A stretch of 42,978 nucleotides of DNA from Campylobacter sp. (GTDB lineage Bacteria; Campylobacterota; Campylobacteria; Campylobacterales; Campylobacteraceae), in NCBI GenBank assembly GCA_022775765.1, contig JALFKC010000051.1, positions 1 to 42,978 of the forward strand, given 5' to 3'. Shown here piece after piece: positions 15,766 to 32,144 of the stretch; position 1 is the first letter of the stretch; every line of letters begins with the position of its first letter. Position numbers and translations under genes: made by a program. The notes beneath the pieces were generated by a model. That model was not told the DNA's origin. It saw only the letters and a program-made list of their open reading frames with translations, and ran no database searches.

Positions 15766-18297
15766 ATGAAAAAGATTGTGTTAATTAGTTTTGTCTATGC
15801 TTGTGCGTTTGGCGATCAGATAGTCATCAAAGATCTAAATGTCACAGCAAACAAAGCCAAAGGCGGTGGTGCTATCAAAACAGGCGAGTTTTTGGGCTCG
15901 ACTAGTTATGATAGGGATTATTTGAATAGTTCGTTAAAAGGTGATGGAGTGATATCAAATATCATCAAAGCAAATCCAAATGCAAGAGTTAGCTTAGGTG
16001 AGAGAACTTCTAAAAATAGTGGTGAAATTTTACCACAAAATATCTCTATAAATGGAGCGGAGATTTATCAAAATAATTTTTTGGTTGATGGGGTAAATAT
16101 CAACAATGATATCAATCCATTAGGTGGCGTAATAAGCACTGGAGCGGCTGCCAATAGGACACCATTTTTAACCAATCCGTCTCAAGGATTAAATATTGAT
16201 ACCGATTTACTTGAAAATATTGAAATACTAGATAGCTCAGTTAGTGCAAAATATGGCTCATTTCAAGGTGGTGTGGTAAGGGCTAAAACAAAAGACCCAA
16301 GGCGTGGTTTTCACGGAAAGATAAACTTTAGCTACACTTCGGATGATTGGCAAAAGTTTCACATAGCCAAAGAAGAACAAGATGATTTTGATTATTCAAC
16401 CAATTCAAGTTATCAGCCCGATTTTAAAAAATACAAAACAGGTGTAACTTTAGAAGGGTTTTTGAGTGATAATTTTGGTTTGATAATGAACTACAATCAA
16501 ACTTATTCTAAAATTTATCAACAAATATACCAAAAAGATTACGATTTAGAACCATCACTTGTGGGTTCAAAACGCAAGCTATATAGAAAAAATGAGAATC
16601 TATTTTTAAAAGGACTTTGGTATGCAAATGATAGTCTTACAGTAAGGCCAAGTTTTACATATTCACCATACAAAGCCACCTACTATTCAACTGGCGGACA
16701 CAATGCTGGGGCTAAAGTTGAGGGTGGTGCGATAGGTGGAAGTGTTGAGTTTGATTACGATACAAGCTTTGCAAATATCAATCAAATTTTTTCATATCAA
16801 GAGTCTCAAATGTCAAGAGATACTAATAGCGATAGGATGTTTGTTTGGCGTAAGACAAAAAGTATGCCAGGAGTTACTAAAAGTAAAACTGATAATGTCA
16901 TTGATGGAGTTGGTGGCGATGTAGATCAAAAGCAAAGTAAGTTCGCATATAGTTTGGATGTGGAATTTAACGAGTTTGATTTGGGGATAACTTCTCATAG
17001 TTTTATAGCAGGACTACATTTAGACAAAACCGATGCAAAATATGATATCAAAAATCCATATTATCACGCAACTACGCCTTTAAATTTAGGCATATTTAGC
17101 TGCAAAAAAGATGATATATTTTGCCTTGATGATGAGATAATAGCTAATAGATATCAAAACTGGTCAGGCCAGTATTTTAACCGCTATAATTACTATCAAG
17201 GCAAAATCGATGTTGATATGAAAACTTACGCATTTTATCTTGAAGATAAGATTAAGATTGATAGATTTACTATAAGGCCGGGTTTTAGGCTTGATAAAAA
17301 CGACTATATGGGCAATCTTAACTATAGCCCAAGACTTAGTGTGAATGCTGATGTCTTTAATGATGATAAGACAAATATTTTTGGTGGCTATAATAGATAT
17401 TATGGAAGAAGCATTTTTGCCTATAAGCTTAGAGATGGGATGAGTGCTCTAGAAAGTAGCTACAAAAGAAAAAATCCAAACTCACCTTGGGAATATGACA
17501 AAAGTGCTTTAAATAGCTATAATTTTAAAGATTTAGATGTCCCTTATGATGATGAATATGTGGTAGGTTTTGCACAGAAATTCGGAGATTTTGAACTTAG
17601 TGGCAAATATACAAGAAGAGAGGGCAAGGATCTAATTAGACGCACAAGTGCTAGCAAAATGGGTGCAACGCCAGGCGATGGCAAAACTCTTAGAAAGGAT
17701 TATTACTACTACACAAACGAGGGTGAAAGCAAGACAAATATCTATACTTTAAAACTGAAAAATTTAAATCAATTAGAGGCTTTTGGGACTTATAACAGCT
17801 TTGAGATTTCATATAATTATATAGATACCAAAAGAAATTTTGATAATTTTAATGATATTTTTGATGATTACTACGACAAGGCTACTAAGGTTGTGTATAA
17901 AGATAAGGTTATCAATCAAACCGAACTTCCCAAAAACACTAATGATATTCCGTGGAAAGTTACAGCAACCACAATAACTAAAATCCCATCTATGCATTTT
18001 ACTTGGTCGAATTTCTTTACTCTACAAGGTGGATATGACGCTATTGTAAGAGATGGTAAGGTGGATATAGATGGCAAAAGACTTACAAAATATAAGGACA
18101 AAAGCATTGATAACTCATTTACTTGGGATACTAGATTAAGTCTAGAGTTTCCTTTACCAAAGGAGAGTTTTGCATTTATAAATTTTGATATTTACAATAT
18201 TTTGGATGATGAAAATGCTGTATCTATAAGTGATAATGGTGTGGTCAATTATGATGTGGGTAGGCAGTTTTGGTTAGAGGTTGGATACAGGTGGTAA
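15766..18297 (+). CDS. TonB-dependent outer-membrane receptor
   Basis: Outer-membrane importer, 843 residues. A signal peptide (about 1-17, ending ACAFG) is followed by a plug domain (to about residue 180, including NISINGAEIYQNNFLVDGV and AKYGSFQGGVVRAKTKDP) and a long barrel ending in aromatic YRW, the usual outer-membrane signature. The short stretch after the signal peptide (IVIKDLNVTANKA) resembles a TonB box region. Cysteines in FSCKKDDIFCLDD could form a disulfide in an outside loop. The ligand is not identifiable. The Fur-like box and PepSY neighbour point to a ferric siderophore or similar iron complex. The start follows AAAAAGG. Confidence 0.9.
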   Translation: MKKIVLISFVYACAFGDQIVIKDLNVTANKAKGGGAIKTGEFLGSTSYDRDYLNSSLKGDGVISNIIKANPNARVSLGERTSKNSGEILPQNISINGAEIYQNNFLVDGVNINNDINPLGGVISTGAAANRTPFLTNPSQGLNIDTDLLENIEILDSSVSAKYGSFQGGVVRAKTKDPRRGFHGKINFSYTSDDWQKFHIAKEEQDDFDYSTNSSYQPDFKKYKTGVTLEGFLSDNFGLIMNYNQTYSKIYQQIYQKDYDLEPSLVGSKRKLYRKNENLFLKGLWYANDSLTVRPSFTYSPYKATYYSTGGHNAGAKVEGGAIGGSVEFDYDTSFANINQIFSYQESQMSRDTNSDRMFVWRKTKSMPGVTKSKTDNVIDGVGGDVDQKQSKFAYSLDVEFNEFDLGITSHSFIAGLHLDKTDAKYDIKNPYYHATTPLNLGIFSCKKDDIFCLDDEIIANRYQNWSGQYFNRYNYYQGKIDVDMKTYAFYLEDKIKIDRFTIRPGFRLDKNDYMGNLNYSPRLSVNADVFNDDKTNIFGGYNRYYGRSIFAYKLRDGMSALESSYKRKNPNSPWEYDKSALNSYNFKDLDVPYDDEYVVGFAQKFGDFELSGKYTRREGKDLIRRTSASKMGATPGDGKTLRKDYYYYTNEGESKTNIYTLKLKNLNQLEAFGTYNSFEISYNYIDTKRNFDNFNDIFDDYYDKATKVVYKDKVINQTELPKNTNDIPWKVTATTITKIPSMHFTWSNFFTLQGGYDAIVRDGKVDIDGKRLTKYKDKSIDNSFTWDTRLSLEFPLPKESFAFINFDIYNILDDENAVSISDNGVVNYDVGRQFWLEVGYRW

Positions 18298-18298
18298 G

Positions 18299-18727
18299 AT
18301 GGAAGTTTTAAGTGAATATATTGATTATATAATTTTTGGCGTATTAGGATTTATGAGTTTTATATCTCTAAGTATAAGTATTGAAAGATTGATATTTTAT
18401 CTAAGATTTAAGCAAAAAAATTATACAAATTTTACCAAACTCAAAAACGATCTTAGCAAAAATCTCACCGCACTTGGCATAATAGGTTCAAATGCACCTT
18501 ATGTAGGGCTTTTGGGCACAGTTATAGGGATAATCATCACTTTTTTTGATATGGGAAAAAGTGGCAATTTTGAGACAACAGTAATAATGAGTGGCCTCTC
18601 AACTGCTCTATATGCTACAGCTTTGGGGCTTTTGGTTGCTATACCAAGCCTTATAGTTTATGGATTTTGTGTTAGAAAAGTCCAAAAAGAACTTGACATT
18701 TTCAAAGAAAATAAGGGGAGATCTTGA
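18299..18727 (+). CDS. exbB: ExbB-type proton channel subunit
   Basis: Part of the ExbB-ExbD inner-membrane motor that uses the proton gradient to drive TonB. It is 142 residues with three membrane segments (about 9-32, 55-82, 96-125), a short form of the MotA/TolQ/ExbB family. The family signature IGSNAPYVGLLGTVIGIIITF is followed by the last helix LSTALYATALGLLVAIP. I use the ATG at 18299, one base after the receptor stop. A TTG at 18281 would overlap the receptor. It is followed by exbD with a one-base overlap (TGATG). Confidence 0.9.
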   Translation: MEVLSEYIDYIIFGVLGFMSFISLSISIERLIFYLRFKQKNYTNFTKLKNDLSKNLTALGIIGSNAPYVGLLGTVIGIIITFFDMGKSGNFETTVIMSGLSTALYATALGLLVAIPSLIVYGFCVRKVQKELDIFKENKGRS

Positions 18728-19104
18728 TGGAAAATGATTTTAAATTAAATGTCGTTCCACTTATTGATGTTATGCTTGTTTTGCTGACAATTGTGCTTTG
18801 TGTGGCTAGCTTTATAGAGTATGGCAAGGTTGATTTAAACTTACCAAAAAGCTATAGCGGAAGTGGTGAGTTTCCAAAAGATAGGGTTGAGATTAATCTT
18901 GATAAAAATGGTGAAATCTCTTTTGATAATCAAAAGATGAGCTTAAGTTTTTTAAAAGAAAATTTACAAATCCTACCAAAGGATAAATTTATTATCTTTA
19001 AGGGTGATGAGAAGGCTTATTTTGGTGAATTCGTAGAAATTTTACAAATCTTAAAAGAGTGCGAACTTAGCAATTTTGTCATAATGACGCAGGTGCAAAA
19101 TTGA
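18727..19104 (+). CDS. exbD: ExbD-type energy transducer subunit
   Basis: Partner of ExbB, 125 residues. A short cytoplasmic N-terminus is followed by one membrane helix (about 11-30) carrying the proton-path aspartate in PLIDVMLVLLTIV, then a periplasmic domain. The ATG at 18727 is preceded at good spacing by AAGGGGAG, which favours it over the TTG three bases earlier. It sits between exbB and tonB with overlaps of one and four bases. Confidence 0.92.
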   Translation: MENDFKLNVVPLIDVMLVLLTIVLCVASFIEYGKVDLNLPKSYSGSGEFPKDRVEINLDKNGEISFDNQKMSLSFLKENLQILPKDKFIIFKGDEKAYFGEFVEILQILKECELSNFVIMTQVQN

Positions 19105-19772
19105 ATAGAAATTCATTCATCGCAATCACTTTATCTGGGGCGTTTCATCTTATAATAATATATGCTTTGATATTCAACGATTTGTTGAATACAAGCATAG
19201 CTGAAAGCAAAAATGATGGAGCTGTTTTTGCTCTTGAGTTTTATCAGGTTGTAGATGGCGATTTTAATAGTGATATGAGCGAAGATATTTTACAAAGTGC
19301 TGAAATTTCAAGCGTTGAAGCTGTTGAGGCCATAGAGACTTTGGAAGAAGAGATTATATTTGAAAATATAGAGAGTATCCATACAAAAGCCAAAAAGTCT
19401 CATCCAAAACCACCCAACTCTACACAAAAAGTCTCTCACACCCAAGCAGGTGGCAAGAGCGTAAGCGGTGATAAAATCTCTCAAAATACAGGCTCAAATC
19501 TTTTGGGTGAAATTTACGCTGCACTTAAAAAACACACAACCTATCCTAAAAAAGCACTTGAAAGAGAGTATGAAGGTAGGGTGCTTGTAAGTTTTAGGCA
19601 GATAAATGGTAGCGAGTTTGAATATATCAAAATCATAAAACCTTGCAAATGGGATATATTAAACTCACACGCACTTAGCATAGTCAAACACTCGGCCAAA
19701 TCAATGCCTAAAAATGCGTATAACAAAGACATAACAGTTCCCATAACATTTAGCTTAAAGGAGATAAGATGA
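19101..19772 (+). CDS. tonB: TonB energy transducer
   Basis: Periplasm-spanning link between ExbBD and the receptor, 223 residues. It has an N-terminal membrane helix (about 7-26), an acidic linker, then a Lys/Pro/Ser/Thr-rich stretch (about 92-125) that is short for TonB. The C-terminal domain begins near residue 137 with YPKKALEREYEGRVLVSF, a clear TonB signature. The start is a TTG overlapping the exbD stop (TTGA), with AGGTG upstream. Being beside this receptor, it is probably dedicated to it. Its stop overlaps the ABC ATPase start (ATGA). Confidence 0.88.
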   Translation: MNRNSFIAITLSGAFHLIIIYALIFNDLLNTSIAESKNDGAVFALEFYQVVDGDFNSDMSEDILQSAEISSVEAVEAIETLEEEIIFENIESIHTKAKKSHPKPPNSTQKVSHTQAGGKSVSGDKISQNTGSNLLGEIYAALKKHTTYPKKALEREYEGRVLVSFRQINGSEFEYIKIIKPCKWDILNSHALSIVKHSAKSMPKNAYNKDITVPITFSLKEIR

Positions 19773-20608
19773 ATATTATAGAGGTTATAAATTTAACACA
19801 AAATTTTTCTGGCAAAACGATTTATCAAAATCTAAATTTTAGCCTCAAAAAAGGCGAGGTTGTGGGGCTTTTAGGCAAAAATGGCGTGGGAAAATCAACT
19901 ACGATTAATATTTTGATGGGAAATTTAGCCCCCACTAGCGGAAAATGCCTAATTTATGGCAAAAATGCGTCAAACCTGCCACCAAATATAAAATCCAAAA
20001 TCGGACTTTTATACGAAGGATATGTGACATATGAATATTTAAGTATCAAAAATTTATATGAAATTTACAAATCTCAATACAAAAAAACCTTCAACAAAGA
20101 TAAATTTTTTGGACTTTTTGATAAACTCGAAGTAAGCTTAAATCAAAAAATCAAAACTCTATCTTGCGGACAAAAATCTCAAGTCGTTTTGGGGCTAATT
20201 TTTGCTTGTGAGCCAGAAATTTTGATACTTGATGATTACTCTTTGGGCTTAGATAGCGGATATAGAAGGCTTTTTGTGGATTATTTAAAAGATTTTATCA
20301 AAAAAGGCGATAAAACCGTGCTGATGACAACTCATATCGTAAATGACCTTGATGGAATTTTAACAGACCTTATTATTATGCGGAAAAATTCACTCCCGCT
20401 TAATATCAAATTTAGCGAATTTAGCCAAAATTTCAAAGGTTACAGCGTCGCAAAAGACACAAATTTAAATGAAATCAGCGGAATTGAAAGCAAACTTTGT
20501 TTTGAAAATGAAAACCAAATCTTTGGATTTTTTAAAGACGCCATCGATGGCAAAGAGCTAGATTTAAGCTTTGAAGATAAATATTTGGGCTATGTTGGGA
20601 GATATTGA
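19769..20608 (+). CDS. ABC transporter ATP-binding protein
   Basis: Cytoplasmic ATPase of 279 residues, close in type to the NosF / ABC-2 exporter class. Walker A is GKNGVGKS (36-43), the signature is LSCGQ (131-135), and the switch His189 is in TTHIVND. Walker B reads ILILDDYSLGLD, so the usual catalytic Glu after Asp155 is Asp156. It has a good AAGGAG and overlaps tonB by four bases and the permease by one. Its presence in a TonB operon suggests handling of something linked to the imported ligand, such as export of a product or passage across the inner membrane. This is inference. Confidence 0.85.
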   Translation: MNIIEVINLTQNFSGKTIYQNLNFSLKKGEVVGLLGKNGVGKSTTINILMGNLAPTSGKCLIYGKNASNLPPNIKSKIGLLYEGYVTYEYLSIKNLYEIYKSQYKKTFNKDKFFGLFDKLEVSLNQKIKTLSCGQKSQVVLGLIFACEPEILILDDYSLGLDSGYRRLFVDYLKDFIKKGDKTVLMTTHIVNDLDGILTDLIIMRKNSLPLNIKFSEFSQNFKGYSVAKDTNLNEISGIESKLCFENENQIFGFFKDAIDGKELDLSFEDKYLGYVGRY

Positions 20609-21288
20609 TGTTTAAAAAAGAGTTTTATAAATTTAAAAATATCTACTTTATTTTTCTATCTTTGGTGTCGATTTTTTTGCTGCATTTTTTTTATCAAATT
20701 TTAAAAGCAACCGATGAAATCGGCGAAGTTGGGCTGAATTTATCATTTTTGCTAGATAAAGATTTTTCGTTTTATTATATCCAAGAGTTAAATTTGTTTT
20801 TTTGCTTAAGTATCGGCATCGCTTCATTTTTGCAAGAGCGAATAAATGGGCGTTTAAGATTAAGCCTTCATTTTCCAAACTCAAATTTTATTAACATTTC
20901 TTACATAATTTTTGGCGGTTTGATTATGATTTTTGTAACATTTTTGAGTGAAATTTTAGCGTTAAATTTGGTGCTTTTTAACTTTTATCCGGGCGAGATT
21001 TTAAAAGTCATAAATTTTCATCTCTTGCTTAATATGCTTTTTGGCGTTTGCATTTATCTATTTTGCGGGGCGATTATTATAGAAAATCTCAAAAAAATCG
21101 CTATTTTTAATTTAGCCATTTTACTTATAAGCGTATATTTTTATTTTAAAATCAACCCAGATATCTATAAATTTAGCAGTTTTTATCAAAATGAAGATGG
21201 ATTTTTTTACTGCTTATTTTGTTTGATTTATGCGATTTTAGCTATTTTTTTAGCTTTTAAAGATTACAAAATGGGATATATCAGATGA
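20608..21288 (+). CDS. ABC transporter permease, probable
   Basis: A 226-residue membrane protein with about six hydrophobic segments (roughly 11-32, 52-72, 90-120, 128-155, 165-185, 195-215), the layout of ABC-2 type permeases. No motif gives the substrate. It is placed between the ATPase and the DUF4857-like gene with overlaps of one and four bases, so the three products probably form one complex. The ATG at 20608 overlaps the ATPase stop (TGATG). Confidence 0.72.
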   Translation: MFKKEFYKFKNIYFIFLSLVSIFLLHFFYQILKATDEIGEVGLNLSFLLDKDFSFYYIQELNLFFCLSIGIASFLQERINGRLRLSLHFPNSNFINISYIIFGGLIMIFVTFLSEILALNLVLFNFYPGEILKVINFHLLLNMLFGVCIYLFCGAIIIENLKKIAIFNLAILLISVYFYFKINPDIYKFSSFYQNEDGFFYCLFCLIYAILAIFLAFKDYKMGYIR

Positions 21289-22448
21289 AAATTTTAAGAT
21301 TTATTCAAGCTTTTATGATTATTTTAGTTTTAGCGACTGTTTTTCCGCTAATTTATGATGCGATTTTTAGCGAAACAAAAAACAAAACAAATTTATACTA
21401 TTCTCAAACTTTAAATGAATTTTTGATTGCAGATTATAACAAAAGCACCAAAAAATACACTTACAAAACTCAAAATGGCAAAAGTTTAAATTTAGATGAG
21501 TTTATGAGAGCTTTGCCTTTTAAATATTACAATTTTTTACTCGAAAAAAATGAATTTCCATTTGAAAAATGGGCAAATAAAGATTTAATCAAAACAAATT
21601 CTCAAAACCTAAATATCAAACCAAGCACTTACAATCAAAAGAAAATCCAGCTATTTACCATCTTTGAAGCAAATCCAAAATATTTAAAATTAAATTACAA
21701 CTCTTTTGCGATCTCAAATTTGGTCAAATTTATAAATTTACAAAATTTAAGCATTGATGAAAATTTAAGCCAAAATTTTATCGCCGCTTTGAAAAATGCA
21801 AATTTTAATTTTCCTTTTGCTGAGTTTTACAACAATCCAACTACCAAAAAACCATTTGATGAAGGGGTATTTTTAAGTGATTTTGATGGCAAAATTTATC
21901 ATCTAAAAATGATAAATTCACTTCCATTTGTAAAAGATACGAATTTAAAAAATATCGATTTTATGCTAGTTAGTGAAAATCCTAGAAAGGAGTTTTACGC
22001 AGCGATAATCGATAAAAATGGTTTTGGACTGATTAGCTATGATGATTATAAAATTATTCGTTTTGATAATCTGAATTACAATCCAAAAAATATGGAAATC
22101 AGCCTTGATATCAATCCGCTAAATAAATTTTTAACCATAAAAAGTAGTGATTTTGTAGAGATGATTTTGTTTGATTATGATTACAATGAGCTTAAAAGAT
22201 TTAAAATCATCAAAGAAAAAAGCCAGTTTTTAAAGGTCAAACCATACATTTTTGCATTTTGGTTTGACAAAGACGATAGTTATAAATTTAAACTTAAATT
22301 TAACGGATATTTTTTGCAAACTTTAGGGATTAATTTAATTTTAATGCTTTTTTATATCGCTTTTAGACGCAAAAAAATCAATATTTTTAAAGCCGCGATA
22401 ATCGCATTTGGTGGCATTTATGGAGTGATAGCAATTTTGGTAATTTGA
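21285..22448 (+). CDS. DUF4857-like membrane protein of the ABC locus
   Basis: A 387-residue protein with one N-terminal helix (about 7-27), a large hydrophilic and probably periplasmic domain (about 30-340), and two C-terminal helices (about 346-363 and 368-387). From memory it resembles DUF4857 proteins, which occur beside ABC transporter genes, but I could not run a search. The middle is rich in Asn, Lys and Phe and has no catalytic motif that I recognise. It overlaps the permease by four bases and ends the operon. A possible role is a periplasmic accessory or tether for the ABC transporter. Confidence 0.6.
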   Translation: MKILRFIQAFMIILVLATVFPLIYDAIFSETKNKTNLYYSQTLNEFLIADYNKSTKKYTYKTQNGKSLNLDEFMRALPFKYYNFLLEKNEFPFEKWANKDLIKTNSQNLNIKPSTYNQKKIQLFTIFEANPKYLKLNYNSFAISNLVKFINLQNLSIDENLSQNFIAALKNANFNFPFAEFYNNPTTKKPFDEGVFLSDFDGKIYHLKMINSLPFVKDTNLKNIDFMLVSENPRKEFYAAIIDKNGFGLISYDDYKIIRFDNLNYNPKNMEISLDINPLNKFLTIKSSDFVEMILFDYDYNELKRFKIIKEKSQFLKVKPYIFAFWFDKDDSYKFKLKFNGYFLQTLGINLILMLFYIAFRRKKINIFKAAIIAFGGIYGVIAILVI

Positions 22449-22509: not shown

Positions 22510-23322
22510 ATGATTTTGAGATATATTTTGTGCGTTTTTGCGTTTATAAGTTCGCTATTTTGCAATGAAATTTTACTTTTAAAAGAGTATAATGATGAGA
22601 ATTTATCAGGCTTTGTTATGAGTGAAAAGCTTGATGGAATTCGCGGGTATTGGGATGGAAAGAGACTTATGAGTAGAAATGGCAATGATTTTAATCCACC
22701 TGAGTTTTGGACTGTAAATTTCCCAGATTTTGCAATTGATGGTGAGCTTTGGAGTGGTAGGGGTGAGTTTGAAAAAATCTCATCAATTGTGAGTTCTAGC
22801 AAGGATAAGGAGCGTTGGAATGAGATAAAATTTATGATTTTTGATGTTCCTGATGCAAATGGCACGCTCAAAGAGAGGCTTGGCGTTTTAAAGAGTTTTT
22901 TGGATAAAAATCCAAATGAGTTTATTAAGATTATCTCTCAGTACGAAGTTAGCGATAAGGCTAGTGCGTATTCGTTTTTAAACGAAGCACTAAGTCTTGG
23001 TGGGGAAGGGATTGTGCTTAGGAAAAATGACGCCCCATATGAGAGATTTCGCTCATCAAACGCTCTAAAACTCAAGCCAACTAATGATAGCGAATGCGAA
23101 GTCATCGCTATCAACAAAGGCAAGGGCAAAAATAGTGGCAAGATGGGCTCAGTTACTTGCAAGGATGAAAGTGTGACTTTTAAAGTTGGCAGCGGTTGGA
23201 GCGATGATGATAGAACTAATCCCCCTAAAATAGGCGATACAATCACCTATGAATACCGTGGCCTAACCAAAAATGGAATCCCTAGATTTCCAACATTTCT
23301 AAGATATAAAAAGGAGTTTTAA
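22510..23322 (+). CDS. secreted ATP-dependent DNA ligase
   Basis: Small ligase of 270 residues with an N-terminal signal peptide (about 1-18), so it should act in the periplasm. The adenylated lysine is Lys40 in EKLDGIRGYWDG. Other nucleotidyltransferase motifs are AIDGELW, EGIVLRK and ALKLKP, followed by a small OB-fold domain. Such exported ligases occur in Campylobacter, Haemophilus and Neisseria and may repair incoming DNA during uptake, though that is not proven. The ATG at 22510 overlaps the AAGGA ribosome site itself. A TTG at 22516 has correct 5-base spacing from AAGGA and may be the true start (268 residues). The stop overlaps gne (TAATG). Confidence 0.88.
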   Translation: MILRYILCVFAFISSLFCNEILLLKEYNDENLSGFVMSEKLDGIRGYWDGKRLMSRNGNDFNPPEFWTVNFPDFAIDGELWSGRGEFEKISSIVSSSKDKERWNEIKFMIFDVPDANGTLKERLGVLKSFLDKNPNEFIKIISQYEVSDKASAYSFLNEALSLGGEGIVLRKNDAPYERFRSSNALKLKPTNDSECEVIAINKGKGKNSGKMGSVTCKDESVTFKVGSGWSDDDRTNPPKIGDTITYEYRGLTKNGIPRFPTFLRYKKEF

Positions 23323-24311
23323 TGAGAATTTTACTTACAGGAGCGGCTGGTTATATCGGCTCGCACACATTAAAAGCATTGCTTGAAGAGAGCGGACACG
23401 AGATAGTTGCGATAGATAACTTTTATAGCGGGGACAAAAAAACTATTGAAATCCTAAGAGATATTGCAGGTTTTACCTTTATAGAGTGCGATACTGCTGA
23501 CACCAAAGAGCTTGATGAGATTTTTAGCGAGTATAAATTTGAAGCGATTATGCACTTTGCGGCTTATATCGAGGTGTTTGAATCCACTCAAAAACCACTC
23601 AAATACTATGAAAACAATGTCGTAAATGCTATAAATTTGATAAATTTAGCGGTTAAATATGGGGTTAAAAACTTTATCTTTTCTTCGACTGCTGCGACTT
23701 ATGGCGAGCCAGAAAGTGGCGTCGTAGATGAGAACTCGTCTCAAAATCCTATTAATCCTTATGGAAGGTCAAAACTTATGGTTGAGTGGATTTTAAAAGA
23801 CACTGCAGCTGCAAATGCTGGCTTTAACTACGGAATTTTAAGATATTTTAATGTTGCAGGGGCTGATGGCTTAATCGGTCAAAACTACCCAAATGCAACT
23901 CATCTTATCAAGGTCGCAACCCAAACTATCACAGGTCAAAGAAAAAGTATGAGTATATTTGGCGATGATTACGATACAAAAGATGGAACTTGTATTAGGG
24001 ATTATATCCATGTCAATGACCTTGCGAGTGCCCATTTAAGCGTGCTTAAGTATATAAATAATCACGGCAGTGAGATATTTAATGTAGGATATGGCAAGGG
24101 ATACTCTGTCAAGGAAGTGATCGAAGTTGCCAAAGAGGTAAGTGGGGTGGATTTCACTGCAAATTTGGCCCCAAGAAGAGCTGGAGATCCAGCTGTGCTT
24201 ATCTCAAATGTTGATAAAATCAAAAATTTAACCGACTGGAAACCAAAATTTGATGATTTAAAACTCATAATTGATTCAGCTCTAAAATGGGAAGAAAAAC
24301 TTATAAAATGA
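23322..24311 (+). CDS. gne: UDP-GlcNAc/UDP-Glc 4-epimerase
   Basis: NAD-dependent short-chain dehydrogenase-type epimerase of 329 residues. The NAD loop is GAAGYIGSH (7-15). The catalytic set is Ser122 in SSTAATYG with Tyr147 and Lys151 in YGRSK. In C. jejuni the gene at this place (gne, once called galE) makes UDP-GalNAc for the N-glycan, LOS and capsule. I infer the same here because it heads the pgl genes and PglA needs UDP-GalNAc. It has an AAGGAG site. One base overlaps the ligase stop, and the stop overlaps the ecotin ATG (ATGA). Confidence 0.9.
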   Translation: MRILLTGAAGYIGSHTLKALLEESGHEIVAIDNFYSGDKKTIEILRDIAGFTFIECDTADTKELDEIFSEYKFEAIMHFAAYIEVFESTQKPLKYYENNVVNAINLINLAVKYGVKNFIFSSTAATYGEPESGVVDENSSQNPINPYGRSKLMVEWILKDTAAANAGFNYGILRYFNVAGADGLIGQNYPNATHLIKVATQTITGQRKSMSIFGDDYDTKDGTCIRDYIHVNDLASAHLSVLKYINNHGSEIFNVGYGKGYSVKEVIEVAKEVSGVDFTANLAPRRAGDPAVLISNVDKIKNLTDWKPKFDDLKLIIDSALKWEEKLIK

Positions 24312-24688
24312 GAGCTTTGTTTTTGATATGTTTGCTCGCTCTTAGTTTGAGTGCTGATATAAAAGAGCTAAATTTTAAACCAAGAGACGATGAAAACGAG
24401 CTTTTGGTTCAAATCTCTTTTGGTAAATTTATGAGCGTGGATTGTAATGAGTATAGATTTCTCTCATCAAATTTAACTAATAGTGATGGAGTGTATAAGC
24501 TTAGTAGTGATGAGAAGATGATAGGCACCAAAATGGCGTGTGATGGCAAAAAAATAAGCAAATTTGTACTATACCCATCAATTATTATTTTACCATATAA
24601 CTCTACAAAGCCTATTTTGGTGGATATTCCTAGTGGGGTTAAAATAAAAGCTAGAGTTTATAAAGCCATCAAAGAACTAAATTTTTAA
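24308..24688 (+). CDS. eco: ecotin-type periplasmic serine protease inhibitor
   Basis: Secreted 126-residue homologue of ecotin. A signal peptide (1-16, LLALSLSA) leaves a mature protein of about 110. Characteristic ecotin blocks are visible: VDCNEYR (Cys46), GTKMACDGKK (Cys78), LPYNSTKPILV and KIKARVYKA. The two cysteines match the ecotin disulfide. By alignment from memory with E. coli ecotin (STMMACPDGKK, P1 Met84), the P1 residue here is Lys75, which predicts strong action on trypsin-like proteases. The loop after VDCN is shorter than in E. coli. It lies between gne and pglB and overlaps gne by four bases. There is no good ribosome site, so it is probably coupled. Confidence 0.88.
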   Translation: MRALFLICLLALSLSADIKELNFKPRDDENELLVQISFGKFMSVDCNEYRFLSSNLTNSDGVYKLSSDEKMIGTKMACDGKKISKFVLYPSIIILPYNSTKPILVDIPSGVKIKARVYKAIKELNF

Positions 24689-24696
24689 GGAAATAA

Positions 24697-26859
24697 ATGC
24701 GTTGTAATACTCAAAATTTAAAAGCTATCATTTATACATTAGTTGCATATATTTTTAGCGTAGCTGTGCGGTATATCTGGGTGAGCTGGGCGAGTGGGAT
24801 TGAGGAGTTTTTTTGGAATGGCGAACTTATGATAAATACAAACGATGGATACGCGTTTGCTGAGGGAGCTAGAGATAGAATAGCTGGATTTCACCAAGAA
24901 AACGACCTGAGCTATTTTAACCACTCACTAGCCAAGCTTACTTCGTGGTTTAGTTTAGTCCTACCAATGCTTAAATTTGAGACAATTATTCTTTATATGA
25001 GTGCGTTTTTTAGCTCACTTATTGTTGTGCCACTTATTCTTATAGCAAAAGAGCTAAAATGCCTTGAAGCTGGGCTGATTGGGGCTTTAATAGCAAGCAT
25101 TGCAATGAGTTATTACAATAGAACTATGATAGGGTATTTTGATACAGATATGCTAAATGTGGTGCTTCCTATGTTTGTTTTATGGGGAATTATAAGGGTT
25201 TTAAAAAGCCAAAAAATAGCAAATATCATCATCGCACCGATTTTTATGCTGATATCTTTGTGGTGGTATAGTGCGAGCTATTCTCTAAATGCCTTGTTAA
25301 TCGGTATATTTTTGCTCTACACTTTAATATTTGATAGAAAAAATATTCTTAATTATAAACTACTTGTTTTAATGCTAATAGTGATATCGGGTTTTAGCTT
25401 GCAAAACAAAATCATCACTATAGCTTTACTCTTTGCATTTTTTTGCTACAAGAAAAATAGCCTTGACTATAAGGTAGTAGCTGGAATCGGCATAGTGGTT
25501 TTGGGAGCACTTATTATAAGTGGTGGGCTAAATCCTATCATTAGGCAGCTTAGCTTTTATGTGGTAAGGGGCGAGGTTACAAATACAGAATCACTTTTTT
25601 ATTTTAATGTAAGCCAAACTATTCAAGAAGCTGGAATTGTTGATTACGATATGTTTTTAAGGCGAATTAGTTCTCACCCACTGATATTTTTGCTCTCAGG
25701 AATAGGGCTATTTTTGGCTATTTTTAGGGTTGAAAATATGGCTGGGCTAAAGGCTTTAAAATTTAGTGAGTTTTTTAGATACAAAGAGCTGATTTTAGCC
25801 CTACCTATACTAGCCTTAGGGTTTTTGGCTGTAAAAGCTGGACTTAGATTTACAATCTATGCGGTTCCAATAATGGCGTTTGGATTTGGGTACTTTGCCT
25901 ATTTTGTGGGTGATTTTGTCAAAAAAGCTCTCATTAATGAGACTCATCAGCAGATCGCAAAAGTGCTATTTATGGTGCTTTTAACCATTGGGGCGTTAAT
26001 TCCATCAATCAATCATATCAATGGATACAAATCATTTAGTGTGTTTTTCCAAGATGAGGTTGAGGTTTTAGATGAGCTAAAACGAGTGGCTGATAGAGAG
26101 GATTACGTCCTTGCGTGGTGGGATTATGGTTACCCTATTAGGTATTATAGTGATGTCAAAACCTTAGTAGATGGAGGCAAACATCTTGGCAATCACAACT
26201 TTGGCGTGAGTTTTGCTCTGTTAAACGACGAGGTAAGCTCAGCAAATATGGCAAGGCTTGAAGTCGAATACACTGAGCAAAATTTCACTCAAAAATTTGG
26301 TGATATTCATCTGCAAATGATGGAAGATTATGGCTTTGATGATATAAACTCATTCCTAATCTCTTTAAAAGATGAGAATTTTAAGCTTCCACCAAAAACA
26401 AGAGATATCTACTATTATTTGCCAAATAGAATGCTAGATATTTTTAGTGTTGTAGCTGCTTTTTCAAATTTAGACCTAAAAACAGGTGAAAGCTATGCAG
26501 ATGGGTTTTTGTTTTCAAGTTTTAATGTTAAAACCTTGCCAAGTGGCGTGGATATCGGCTCTGGGTTAAATTTAAGCGTGGATTTAAAATGGCTAAACTC
26601 TGCTAGAGAGAGTTTGCCAATTGCAAGTTTTATTATCACCAAACAAAATGGCAATGAAGTTGAACTTAAAATCCAAGACAATCATCAAGCAGGGCTTTAT
26701 GCGGTGTTTATGAGTGATTATGGAAGAATGCTTGTGATGGATGAGAAGATGTTTAATTCAACTTTTATCCAGATTTTTGTGCTTCAAATTTATGATAAAG
26801 AGCTGTTTGAGCCTGTTATTATTAACCCTTTTGCGAAAGTTTATAAGCTAAAAAGATAA
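24697..26859 (+). CDS. pglB: bacterial oligosaccharyltransferase PglB
   Basis: STT3-family enzyme that moves the lipid-linked glycan onto asparagine of periplasmic proteins. It is 720 residues (C. jejuni 713) with about 13 N-terminal membrane segments and a periplasmic C-terminal domain. The catalytic motif WWDYG is at 474-478. Acidic metal-site residues are in NTNDGYAF and GYFDTDMLNV, and the flexible-loop glutamate is probably in TNTESLF. Arg322-Arg323 (FLRRIS) matches the position of the C. lari arginine that selects an acidic residue at -2, so the expected sequon is D/E-X-N-X-S/T. The start has AAGGAAATAA upstream. Confidence 0.95.
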   Translation: MRCNTQNLKAIIYTLVAYIFSVAVRYIWVSWASGIEEFFWNGELMINTNDGYAFAEGARDRIAGFHQENDLSYFNHSLAKLTSWFSLVLPMLKFETIILYMSAFFSSLIVVPLILIAKELKCLEAGLIGALIASIAMSYYNRTMIGYFDTDMLNVVLPMFVLWGIIRVLKSQKIANIIIAPIFMLISLWWYSASYSLNALLIGIFLLYTLIFDRKNILNYKLLVLMLIVISGFSLQNKIITIALLFAFFCYKKNSLDYKVVAGIGIVVLGALIISGGLNPIIRQLSFYVVRGEVTNTESLFYFNVSQTIQEAGIVDYDMFLRRISSHPLIFLLSGIGLFLAIFRVENMAGLKALKFSEFFRYKELILALPILALGFLAVKAGLRFTIYAVPIMAFGFGYFAYFVGDFVKKALINETHQQIAKVLFMVLLTIGALIPSINHINGYKSFSVFFQDEVEVLDELKRVADREDYVLAWWDYGYPIRYYSDVKTLVDGGKHLGNHNFGVSFALLNDEVSSANMARLEVEYTEQNFTQKFGDIHLQMMEDYGFDDINSFLISLKDENFKLPPKTRDIYYYLPNRMLDIFSVVAAFSNLDLKTGESYADGFLFSSFNVKTLPSGVDIGSGLNLSVDLKWLNSARESLPIASFIITKQNGNEVELKIQDNHQAGLYAVFMSDYGRMLVMDEKMFNSTFIQIFVLQIYDKELFEPVIINPFAKVYKLKR

Positions 26860-26863
26860 GCGT

Positions 26864-27976
26864 ATGGCAAGGATAGGATTTTTATCTCACGCAGATATGA
26901 GCCTGTATTTTTTTCGCTCACCGGCGATGAGAGCATTAAAAAGCCTAGGGCACGAAATCTTTGCCATAGCCCCAGATAATGGGTATTTGTCTAGGCTTGC
27001 TAGTGAGTTTGAAGTGGTTGATTATAGCCTTGATAAAAGCTCACTAAATCCTATCAAAGTTTTAGATGATACCAAAAATTTAAGCCAAACTCTTAAAAAA
27101 CTAAACCTTGATATGCTTCAAACCTCAGCCCACAAATCAAATGTATTTGGAACATTTGCAGCCAAAAAAGCGGGCATTAAGGTAGTGATAAATTTAGTCG
27201 AAGGGTTAGGTAGCTTTTATATAGATGATGATATTAAAACTAAATTTGTTAGGCTAGCGTTAGAAAATCTTTATAAAAAGAGCTTTAGCCTTGCAAATGC
27301 CTGTATTTTTGTCAATCAAAGTGACCCAAACTATATGATAAGTAAAAATCTAATCCCAAAAGATAGAGCCTTTATCATTAAAAGCGTTGGAATTGATAGT
27401 GCTAAATTTGACCCAAACTTATACGAAAAGCCTAAAAGCGATAAAAAAATCATCCTAATGATGGGGCGTGCACTTTGGCACAAGGGAATACGCGAGTTTT
27501 ATGAAGCAGCTGAAATTTTAAAAGATAGAGATGATTGTGAGTTTGTATTTGTAGGTGATGAGTTTAAGGGCAACAAAAGCAGTGCTAATAGCGAGTTTTT
27601 GCATAGCAAATATGTGAAGTGGTTAGGCTGGGTGGATGATACGCCTAGGGTTTATGCTGGGGCGTATATGTTTGTTTTGCCAAGCTATAAAGAGGGCTTT
27701 CCACGCACGGTTTTGGAGGCGATGAGTATGGCAAAGCCAAGTGTTGTTAGTGATTGCACTGGCTCAAATGAAGCTGTGATTGATGGCGTAAATGGGCTAA
27801 TCTGCAAGGTAAAAAGTAGCGTGGATTTGGCTAAAAAGATAGAAATTTTGCTTGATGATGAAAATTTAGCTTTTAAAATGGGGCAAAACGCAAGGGATTT
27901 GGTGTTAAAAAACTATGACGAAAAGATAGTGGTGCAAAAATACCTTGAAATTTATGAGAAATTTATAGATGTATAA
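26864..27976 (+). CDS. pglA: N,N'-diacetylbacillosaminyl-diphospho-undecaprenol alpha-1,3-GalNAc transferase
   Basis: GT4-family glycosyltransferase, 370 residues (C. jejuni 376). It adds the first GalNAc to undecaprenyl-diphosphate-diNAcBac on the cytoplasmic side. It has two Rossmann-like domains. The donor-site stretch [17 protein letters not shown] holds the E-x7-E type motif, and NLVEGLGS and [14 protein letters not shown] match PglA-like enzymes. It begins four bases after pglB and overlaps pglC by eight. Because pglJ and pglH are absent here, this may be the only GalNAc transferase coded in the locus. Confidence 0.92.
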
Positions 27977-28574
27977 GAGATTTTTAAAAAGAATATTTGA
28001 TTTTATTTTTGCTTTGATTTTGATAATTTTGACCCTGCCGGTGATGATAATTTTATATTTTTTAATCAAAAAAAATCTTAGCCAAAAGCCTATTTTCACA
28101 CAACTTCGCCCGGGACTTAATGAGAGAGTTTTTAAGATTTATAAGTTTAAAACAATGAGCGATGAAAAGGATGAAAATGGCGAGCTTTTGTCTGATGAGC
28201 TTCGTCTAAATAGTTTTGGAAAGAAAATTAGATCTCTAAGCTTAGATGAACTTCCACAACTTTTTAATGTCCTAAAAGGCGATATGAGTTTTATTGGACC
28301 TAGACCTTTGCTTGTGGAGTATTTAGAGCTTTATAACTCTAACCAAAAGCTTCGCCACACCGTAAGACCAGGAATCACTGGCCTAGCTCAAGTTAAGGGT
28401 AGAAACGCCATCAGCTGGCACAAAAAGCTCAAATACGACGCGTTTTACGCTAAAAATTTAAGCTTTTTGCTTGATTTGAAAATCGCACTCTTAACCATCA
28501 AAAAGGTGATCAAAAAAGAGGGAATTTCCAAAGGCAATCTAGCGACAACGGAGAAATTTAATGGCAAAAACTGA
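27969..28574 (+). CDS. pglC: undecaprenyl phosphate diNAcBac-1-phosphate transferase
   Basis: Monotopic phosphoglycosyl transferase of 201 residues. It starts glycan assembly by moving phospho-diNAcBac from UDP to undecaprenyl phosphate. The N-terminal re-entrant helix (about 10-33) is followed by the catalytic core: KFKTM, then the Asp93-Glu94 dyad in [17 protein letters not shown], then GPRPLL and [14 protein letters not shown]. The length and dyad position equal C. jejuni PglC. It overlaps pglA by eight bases and pglD by fourteen. Confidence 0.95.
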
Positions 28575-29148
28575 AATTTACATTTATGGTGACGGCGGAC
28601 ACGGGCGAGTTGTAGCTGATATCGCTAGGAGCTTGGGCTATGAAAAGATAATTTTTTTGGATGATAAAAGCGAGAGTAAATTTAGCCCAAATTTACCCAA
28701 AAAAGAGATAATCATCGCTATTGGCGATAACTGCGTTAGAGCTAAAGTTCAAGATAAGGTGCTTAAATCTGGCTTTGAAGTGGTTAGTCTAATCCATCCT
28801 AGTGCTATAGTTTCAAAAAGTGCGGTTGTTGGCAAAGGCGTGGTGATTATGCCAAATGCCGTCATTAATGCAAATGTACTTATCAAAGATGGTGCTATCA
28901 TCAACACTTCAGCTGTTGTAGAACACGACTGCGTAATTGGTGAGTTTGCTCATCTTAGCCCAAATGTAGCCATCGCAGGTGGAGTAAAAGTTGGTGAGTT
29001 TTCGCATTTAGGCATTGCTAGTTCAGTGATACAAAAAATATCTATAGGTGCTAATTCAACCATCGGAGCTGGAGCGTGCGTGATAGATGATATCTCGCCA
29101 GATTGCGTTGCAGTAGGCGTGCCAGCAAGAGTTATCAAAACAAAATAG
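28561..29148 (+). CDS. pglD: UDP-4-amino-4,6-dideoxy-GlcNAc N4-acetyltransferase
   Basis: Left-handed beta-helix acetyltransferase, 195 residues. It makes UDP-diNAcBac with acetyl-CoA, the last step of the sugar donor for PglC. The N-terminal nucleotide-sugar domain has [12 protein letters not shown]. Hexapeptide repeats follow, with His122 in VVEHDCVIG as the probable catalytic base. The start lies 14 bases inside pglC, with GGAG upstream. A hairpin directly follows its stop, and pglE starts 96 bases on. Confidence 0.93.
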
Positions 29149-30362
<1,214 letters not shown>

Positions 30363-30363
<1 letters not shown>

Positions 30364-32144
30364 TGATTTTGAACTCTTTGCTGACACCAACAAAGCTCAA
30401 AAGGACCCTATTTTTTATAAGCTATGACTGTTTGGCTTCGCTTTTTGCCACTCTTTGTGCGTTTTTACTTAGATTTAGTGGCGAAATTCCACCGGTTTTT
30501 TATAAAGGGCTTGTTTTAAGTGCTCTAATTTTAATGGGGCTTAGAGTATTTTTTATGTGGATTTATAAAATTTACAAGGTTCCGTGGAGATTTTTTGGAC
30601 TTCATGAAGCTAGAAAAATTTTTAACGCTCACCTTTGGGTTATTTTAAGCTTTAGCGTGATTTTTATCATTTTTGAAGATTTTTTTAATCCATTTCCAAG
30701 AAGCGTTATCATTATAGACGCAGCGATTTCATATATATTAATAGGCGGATTTAGGATAACTAAAAGGCTATTTTTTAGCAAAACTACCCCAAAAGGTAGG
30801 CCTTGCGTGATAATAGGGGCTACTAAAAAAACCATTCAAGTCTTAAAAGGCATAGATGATGGATTTTTAAACTACTACGCAGTTGGAGTGTTTGATAGTA
30901 GAGATGAGCTAGTTGGAACCTATATCCAAAACCACAGAGTTCAGCCGATTTCAAACATCAACGAGCTTGTAAGGGGCGGGGTAAAGACTGCGATTATAGC
31001 CTTTGAAACTACGCCTGATGAGCTTAAGCAAATTTATGAAAAGCTAAATGTACTAGGCATAAAAGAGATCAAAATTTTCACTCTCTTAGATAGCAACGAA
31101 CACAGCATTAGAGATATATCAATTGAGGATTTACTTGCTAGAAAGCCAAAAGACCTTGACAAAACCGCTATCAAAGAGTTTATCAAAGACAAAACTGTGC
31201 TAATTACTGGAGCTGGTGGAAGTATAGGAAGTGAGCTTTGCAAGCAGTGTGAAATTTATGGTGCAAAAAGGCTGATTTTGGTTGAAAATAGCGAGTTTAA
31301 TCTCTATAAAATCAACGAATTTTTAAAGGTTGAGAGAACTTTAAATTTGGTGGATATCACTAGAAAAAATGAGTTAGAAGATATTTTCAAACAAAATAGT
31401 GATATCGATATAGTTTTGCACGCAGCTGCGTATAAGCATGTCCCACTTTGTGAATTTAACCCAAAAAGTGCGGTTAAAAACAATATCTTAGGCACCAAAA
31501 TTTTAGTTGATCTTTGCAAAGAGTATAAAATTCCTAAATTTGTGCTTATCTCAAGCGATAAGGCGGTGCGTCCAACTAGCATCATGGGGGCAACCAAAAG
31601 AGTGTGTGAGCTTTATGCACTCAACTCAAGTAGTGACGTTACCCAGATAGTAGCGGTTAGATTTGGCAATGTGCTTGGAAGCAGCGGCTCAGTTATTCCT
31701 AAATTTAAAGCTCAAATTGCAAACAATCAACCTCTTAGCGTAACTCACAAAGATATCACGCGGTATTTTATGCTAGTTGGCGAAGCGTGTGAGCTGGTGC
31801 TTCAGGCTGCTTCGATGGCAAAGGGTGGTGAGCTTTTTGTGCTTGATATGGGTGAGCCTGTGAAGATAGTTGATTTAGCCAAAAAAATGTTAGAGTTAGC
31901 TGGCAAAAGTGAGCTTGGTATCAAAATCGTAGGGCTTAGACCTGGCGAAAAGCTTTACGAAGAGCTTTTGGTTAGCGAAAATGACAAAAAAACTAAGTAT
32001 AATTCTATATTTGTAACTCATTCAGGCAAGTGCGAGCTTGATACATTAAATAGGCAAATTGATGAAATTTCAAAGCTTTTTGATGGTGATGAAATTTTAT
32101 CAAAATTAAAAGAGATAGTTGTGGATTTTAACCACCAAAAATAA
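30363..32144 (+). CDS. pglF: UDP-GlcNAc 4,6-dehydratase (inverting-type membrane form)
   Basis: First enzyme of diNAcBac synthesis, 593 residues (C. jejuni 590). Four N-terminal membrane helices (to about residue 130) are followed by a CoA-binding-like domain and a C-terminal SDR domain with TGAGGSIGSE. The active site reads SSDKAVRPTSIMGATKR: the usual SDR Tyr is replaced by Met, with the Asp-Lys pair retained, as in PglF/WbpM-type dehydratases. The ATG at 30363 overlaps the pglE stop (TGATG) with AAGGAAG upstream. It is the last pgl gene; pglG, next in C. jejuni, is missing. Confidence 0.94.

What the first reader, a model, noticed from the sequence alone, without database searches (positions are those of the whole stretch)
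24308..24688. An ecotin with a lysine P1 residue inside the N-glycosylation operon
The sequence shows a signal peptide, both ecotin cysteines and the GTKMACDGKK reactive-loop block, with Lys75 where E. coli ecotin has P1 Met84. Established: ecotin is a periplasmic inhibitor of chymotrypsin-fold serine proteases, and P1 sets preference. Inference: this one favours trypsin-like host proteases (gut trypsin, coagulation, complement or neutrophil types) and may shield glycosylated surface proteins. It is translationally linked to gne and lies nine bases before pglB. The mature protein has NLT and NST sites but no acidic residue at -2, so it is probably not itself a PglB target.
Basis: partly seen in the sequence, partly recalled or inferred. 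Interest (0 to 1): 0.62.

Follow-up and report, generated by a model that had tools for sequence, protein, structure and literature searches.

The report
Lysine-tipped ecotin beside glycosylation genes
A Campylobacter-family bacterium carries a small secreted protease blocker (ecotin) beside its protein-glycosylation genes; the gene and its location are already known in this group, but this copy has a lysine tip suited to trypsin-like enzymes and has lost the usual second gripping surface.

Summary
Window 24308-24688 encodes an intact 126-aa ecotin (Pfam PF03974, E=7e-16). The predicted fold matches solved ecotins (Z about 12-13). Lys75 aligns with P1 Met84 of E. coli ecotin, and both disulfide cysteines are kept.

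The setting is not new. Thomas et al. 2020 (PMC7773321) described ecotins in Campylobacter pgl loci and showed that two of them inhibit trypsin, factor Xa and neutrophil elastase. In my survey, 38 of 153 family genomes carry an ecotin; in 34 of these it lies upstream of pglB, same strand, within 15 kb. Only the window has it directly on pglB, because the flippase and glycosyltransferase genes that separate them in relatives are missing here.

The lysine is unusual but not unique. P1 in the 38 genomes: Met 26, Leu 8, Lys 2, Thr 1, Asp 1. Basic P1 is published for plant-associated ecotins, and I found Lys in Xenorhabdus.

This resembles the engineered M84R, 67-70-Ala ecotin (1ezs). Best reading: a site-1-driven inhibitor of trypsin-like proteases. 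The 'neutrophil' part of the inference is poorly supported. No biochemistry could be run.

The parts
24308..24688 (+). ecotin gene, 126 aa, intact (alternative ATG at 24287)
   Evidence: PF03974 E=7e-16; PDB ecotins E=9e-12; AlphaFold model pLDDT 88.6, Z 12-13 to ecotins
24308..24355 (+). putative signal peptide (residues 1-16, cleavage guessed after ...LSLSA)
   Evidence: read by eye; no predictor run; low pLDDT for residues 1-6
24443..24445 (+). Cys46, equivalent to E. coli Cys50 (disulfide)
   Evidence: invariant column
24527..24541 (+). reactive loop T74-K75-M76-A77-C78; codon for P1 Lys75 is AAA at 24530-24532; Cys78 = E. coli Cys87
24476..24496 (+). remnant of the 60s loop (TNSDGVY); Trp67-Gly68-Tyr69 of the usual GWGYxYY motif deleted
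24593..24610 (+). 100s loop PYNSTK: Arg108 replaced by Pro96, Asn110/Ser111 kept, sequon NST without acidic -2
23322..24311 (+). gne/galE-type epimerase, 4-base overlap with the ecotin start codon
   Evidence: TIGR01179 455 bits
24697..26859 (+). pglB oligosaccharyltransferase, 720 aa
   Evidence: STT3-PglB_core E=7e-57; NF050801 743 bits, below its cut-off of 1300
26864..32144 (+). rest of the pgl locus: GT4 (PglA-like), PglC-, PglD-, PglE- and PglF-like genes

Best explanation
The gene encodes an exported ecotin that inhibits S1-family (chymotrypsin-fold) serine proteases reaching the cell envelope. It acts substrate-like: the 80s loop (T74-K75-M76), held by the Cys46-Cys78 disulfide, enters the protease active site with Lys75 in the S1 pocket. 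Because P1 is Lys and the secondary site is largely lost (60s loop deleted, Arg108 to Pro), binding should rest mostly on site 1 and favour trypsin-like enzymes (trypsin, factor Xa, plasmin, MASP type) over elastase or chymotrypsin. It is probably co-transcribed with gne and pglB, so protease inhibition and N-glycosylation would be two co-expressed layers of protection against host proteases. Shown here: family, fold, P1 residue, site-2 loss, locus conservation. Inferred: export, co-transcription, dimer state, targets, physiological role.
For: Family and fold. P1 Lys. Constraint: despite a long branch (1.65 changes per column) it keeps 12 of 13 positions near-invariant in the aligned Campylobacteraceae and E. 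coli ecotins, including D49, C50, N51, T83, M85 and C87. Site-2 loss: W67, G68, Y69 deleted and R108 to P. Solved structures of engineered basic-P1 ecotins with trypsin-like enzymes exist: M84R with a 67-70-Ala 60s loop on trypsin (1ezs), M84R on factor Xa (1p0s) and on factor XIa (1xx9), listed. In PMC9136129, P1 Arg largely compensated for a weakened site 2 and for monomerisation (lectin-pathway IC50 83 nM for site1R/site2A, 141 nM for the site1R monomer, 107 nM for wild type). Locus: 34 of 38 ecotin genomes have pglB downstream within 15 kb. Function of relatives: PMC7773321.
Against: No biochemical test of this protein. P1 alone does not set ecotin specificity: Met- and Leu-P1 Campylobacter ecotins already inhibit trypsin and factor Xa (PMC7773321). 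The fast-evolving sequence, loss of the N-terminal segment and short C-terminal arm could also mean partial loss of function. Dimerisation is untested. The other P1-Lys relative (G072) has no pglB that could be found, and two others (G001, G004) have unlinked ecotin and pglB, so the coupling is not obligatory.
Confidence: 0.72

Rival explanations
1. It is an ordinary broad-range ecotin: Lys at P1 is neutral drift, and the protein inhibits the same range (trypsin, factor Xa, elastase) as the C. rectus and C. showae ecotins.
For: Ecotins tolerate several P1 residues (in the family survey Met 26, Leu 8, Lys 2, Thr 1, Asp 1). Campylobacteraceae ecotins with a shortened 60s loop and Met or Leu P1 are common.
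Against: A basic-loop ecotin (Tatumella citrea) is reported about 1,000-fold weaker on neutrophil elastase (PMC9904509); with site 2 weakened, P1 should matter more (PMC9136129).
Confidence: 0.15
2. It is a decaying ecotin: loss of the N-terminal segment, 60s loop and arm residues reflects relaxed selection, with little or no inhibitor activity left.
For: Very long branch; a relative in another genus (G132, L016) has an ecotin that lost the reactive-loop cysteine and part of the loop.
Against: ORF intact between overlapping or tightly spaced genes; cysteines, reactive loop and core kept; confident ecotin fold.
Confidence: 0.08
3. Its main target is a bacterial protease (its own HtrA or one from neighbouring microbes) rather than a host enzyme.
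For: Periplasmic location is expected, and the gene sits in a glycosylation locus concerned with the cell's own envelope proteins.
Against: E. coli, C. rectus and C. showae ecotins do not inhibit DegP or C. jejuni HtrA (PMC7773321).
Confidence: 0.05

Closest known systems
Ecotins of Campylobacter rectus and C. showae (Thomas et al. 2020, PMC7773321)
   Same: Same family, conserved cysteines and P2 Thr in most, located at the pgl (N-glycosylation) locus, low identity to E. coli ecotin.
   Different: P1 is Leu (C. rectus) or Met (C. showae), Lys here; inhibition of elastase, trypsin and factor Xa shown there, nothing measured here.
E. coli ecotin (eco, b2209)
   Same: Fold (Z about 12-13), Cys50-Cys87 equivalents, reactive loop T-P1-M-A-C.
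   Different: P1 Met84 versus Lys75; E. coli has an intact 60s loop WGYD, Arg108 and a full C-terminal dimerisation arm; here the loop is deleted, Arg108 is Pro and the arm is shorter. Score 50 bits against the NCBI ecotin equivalog model with cut-off 162.
Engineered ecotin M84R, W67A, G68A, Y69A, D70A (PDB 1ezs)
   Same: Basic P1 plus ablated 60s loop, the same combination of features; top of the structural list (Z 13.4, tied with others).
   Different: Laboratory mutant of E. coli ecotin with Arg, not Lys; the loop is mutated to Ala there, deleted here.
Basic-P1 ecotins of Burkholderia glumae (Lys), Tatumella citrea (Arg), Rhizobium (Arg) (review PMC9904509); Xenorhabdus stockiae and X. innexi (Lys, found here)
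   Same: Basic residue at P1.
   Different: Plant or insect associates; their neighbourhoods were not examined here; the two Xenorhabdus copies keep the GWGYNYY 60s loop.

Membership tests
Ecotin (PF03974) | Profile match above curated cut-off | tested here: met
   58.7 bits versus 22.2
Ecotin (PF03974) | Ecotin fold | tested here: met
   Model pLDDT 88.6; the 29 best PDB hits are all ecotins; best Z 13.4, unrelated folds at most 3.9
Ecotin (PF03974) | Two cysteines (E. coli Cys50, Cys87) | tested here: met
   Cys46 and Cys78
Ecotin (PF03974) | Reactive 80s loop T-P1-M-x-C | tested here: met
   TKMAC
Ecotin (PF03974) | Export signal | tested here: inconclusive
   Hydrophobic N-terminus read by eye; no predictor run; published Campylobacter ecotins also score low in SignalP (PMC7773321)
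Ecotin (PF03974) | Inhibition of S1 serine proteases | not testable with these tools
   needs an assay
E. coli-type two-site ecotin (NCBIfam PRK03719 equivalog) | Equivalog score cut-off of 162 bits | tested here: not met
   50.4 bits
E. coli-type two-site ecotin (NCBIfam PRK03719 equivalog) | Secondary site: 60s loop W67-G68-Y69-D70 and Arg108/Asn110 | tested here: not met
   loop deleted, Arg108 to Pro, Asn110 kept
E. coli-type two-site ecotin (NCBIfam PRK03719 equivalog) | C-terminal arm and homodimer | tested here: inconclusive
   arm shorter than in E. coli; monomer model only
Campylobacter pgl-locus ecotins | Encoded with gne and pglB on one strand | tested here: met

The most novel reading that the evidence does not exclude
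A natural one-site ecotin: in this lineage selection replaced broad, two-site inhibition (neutral P1 plus secondary site) by a narrow, site-1-driven trypsin-type inhibitor with basic P1, matching a host niche rich in trypsin-like rather than elastase-like proteases. This would be the natural counterpart of the engineered M84R, 67-70-Ala ecotin.
Probability: 0.35. Interest if true: 0.45.

Novelty: new variant of a known kind. Interest (0 to 1): 0.3.

Why it matters
If the inhibitor is specialised for trypsin-like enzymes, it would show how ecotin can trade its two-site breadth for P1-driven specificity in nature, and it would tie the protease profile of a Campylobacter niche to a single residue. 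It also adds to the evidence that ecotin and N-glycosylation are linked layers of protease resistance in non-thermophilic Campylobacter. The general idea is already published, so the gain is modest.

Tried and rejected
Single-protein search of named genomes with the window ecotin found no relative: it is too divergent. A 15-row ecotin alignment had no stretch conserved enough for that search. A five-row alignment worked, but its patterns require the GWGYxYY loop or an N-terminal motif, so those 80 loci cannot be used to say how rare loop loss is; I relied on the Pfam-based family survey for that. Common ancestry of the two P1-Lys Campylobacteraceae ecotins (window and G072) could be neither shown nor rejected (p-AU 0.257); both are long branches. 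I looked for a displaced glycan-assembly cassette in the rest of the genome: the flippase of one relative has no match (no positive control in that search), and the Wzx-like genes on C17 and C52 sit in other polysaccharide clusters. The species could not be named: the genome is held without a name.

Full report
What is there. The ORF at 24308-24688 (+) encodes 126 residues, and an in-frame ATG at 24287 gives 133. It matches Pfam Ecotin at 58.7 bits, E=7e-16, and solved ecotins, E=9e-12, and it is the only ecotin in the 1.80-Mb genome. The gne stop overlaps the ecotin start by four bases (ATGA), and eight bases separate the ecotin stop from the pglB ATG. Cys46 and Cys78 align with the disulfide cysteines Cys50 and Cys87 of E. 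coli ecotin. The AlphaFold model (pLDDT 88.6, 29-row alignment) matches 29 ecotin chains and nothing else convincingly (Z 12.0-13.4 for ecotin entries against at most 3.9 for other folds). Only aligned ranges are returned by that tool, so the residue-level P1 assignment rests on the sequence alignments.

Most ecotins grip the protease twice: the 80s/50s loops bind the active site (site 1), and the 60s/100s loops bind a second surface (site 2). In this protein the 60s loop is cut short: Trp67, Gly68 and Tyr69 are deleted, Tyr71 is Val, Arg108 is Pro and Leu113 is Lys, while Asn110 and Ser111 are kept. The N-terminal segment found in E. coli and in many relatives is also missing, and the C-terminal arm that holds the dimer is shorter. 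The comparison set was fetched with a pattern that includes the 60s loop, so near-invariance of the loop in that set is partly built in. In the Pfam-based family survey, loop shortening is also seen in a large Met/Leu-P1 clade. Of the 13 positions near-invariant in the other aligned Campylobacteraceae and E. coli ecotins, the window keeps 12, which argues against simple decay.

How it most likely works. Ecotin acts as a substrate-like inhibitor with P1 in the S1 pocket. [quoted passage not shown] In that paper P1 Arg raised potency on all three trypsin-like MASPs and largely compensated for a weakened site 2 (lectin-pathway IC50 83 nM, wild type 107 nM) or for loss of the dimer (141 nM). The window protein has a similar combination in natural form: a basic P1 and an eroded site 2. 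The engineered mutant M84R, W67A, G68A, Y69A, D70A (PDB 1ezs) is the top structural match, although its Z is tied with others. I therefore favour a site-1-driven inhibitor of trypsin-like proteases. Elastase-type neutrophil targets are less likely: the review PMC9904509 reports about 1,000-fold weaker elastase inhibition by the Tatumella citrea ecotin, which has a basic contact-loop residue but still inhibits trypsin.

The locus. Ecotin occurs in 38 of 153 genomes of the family, in 3 of 12 genera. In 34 of the 38, a pglB lies downstream on the same strand within 15 kb. In two the genes are unlinked (G001, G004), in one they are on different contigs (G008), and in one no pglB was found (G072). 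In G002, G003, G013, G131 and G132 the order is ligase, gne, ecotin, then a block of flippase and glycosyltransferase genes (in G013 mixed with other sugar genes; in G002 the flippase-like gene is on the other strand), then pglB, then the PglA-like GT4 and pglC and, where the stretch reaches, pglD. In the window this block is missing, which is why ecotin touches pglB. These counts are of related genomes and are not independent events.

P1 survey. In the 38 family genomes P1 is Met in 26, Leu in 8, Lys in 2 (window, G072), Thr in 1 (G061) and Asp in 1 (G132, where the loop cysteine is also lost) (its Met count of 28 includes one genome outside the family, listed twice). In 80 ecotins from named genomes P1 is Met 42, Leu 34, Lys 3 (Xenorhabdus stockiae, X. 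innexi, a Flavobacteriia MAG) and His 1. The literature lists Lys in Burkholderia glumae and Arg in Tatumella and Rhizobium (PMC9904509). A basic P1 is therefore rare but recurrent. Whether the two Campylobacteraceae cases share an origin is unresolved.

Known or new. Thomas et al. 2020 (PMC7773321) already reported ecotins at the pgl loci of non-thermophilic Campylobacter, P1 Met in C. showae and Leu in C. [quoted passage not shown] jejuni pglB mutant. The window gene is a new variant in that series: Lys at P1 with a reduced site 2. The NST sequon falls at the site-2 position Asn110.

Limits. No assay, no dimer prediction, no signal-peptide predictor, no second strain of this species, and no species name. 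The host and niche are unknown, so the choice of physiological target is inference.

Noticed in passing
24689-26859 in the window, compared with L118-L122, L132: The flippase and glycosyltransferase block that separates ecotin from pglB in relatives is missing from this pgl locus; the flippase of one relative has no match elsewhere in the genome, and the Wzx-like genes on C17 and C52 lie in other polysaccharide clusters. The N-glycan of this organism may be short or assembled differently.
   Followed up: partly
L011 / L124 (G072): A second P1-Lys ecotin, with a lipobox-like LQGC at its N-terminus (a possible lipoprotein ecotin), in a genome where no pglB was found.
   Followed up: partly
L016 (G132), 1489-1854: Ecotin gene that lost the reactive-loop cysteine and part of the loop, probably non-functional; its close relative G131 has an intact copy.
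   Followed up: no
window 22510-23322: Small ATP-dependent DNA ligase with a signal-peptide-like N-terminus directly upstream of gne; the ligase-gne-ecotin order is conserved in several relatives.
   Followed up: no
window 24287-24310: An upstream in-frame ATG giving MGRKTYKM before the annotated start; a similar start (MGRKYKGVKM, LGRKM) occurs in G002 and G131, so the true start may be 24287.
   Followed up: no
G034-G061 and related genomes: Many genomes of genus g3 carry two pglB genes, one about 1.4 kb and one about 10 kb downstream of ecotin.
   Followed up: no
window 15766-22448: Run of a large outer-membrane-receptor-like gene, ExbB/ExbD/TonB-like genes, an ABC transporter and a DUF4857 protein just upstream of the pgl locus.
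   Followed up: no
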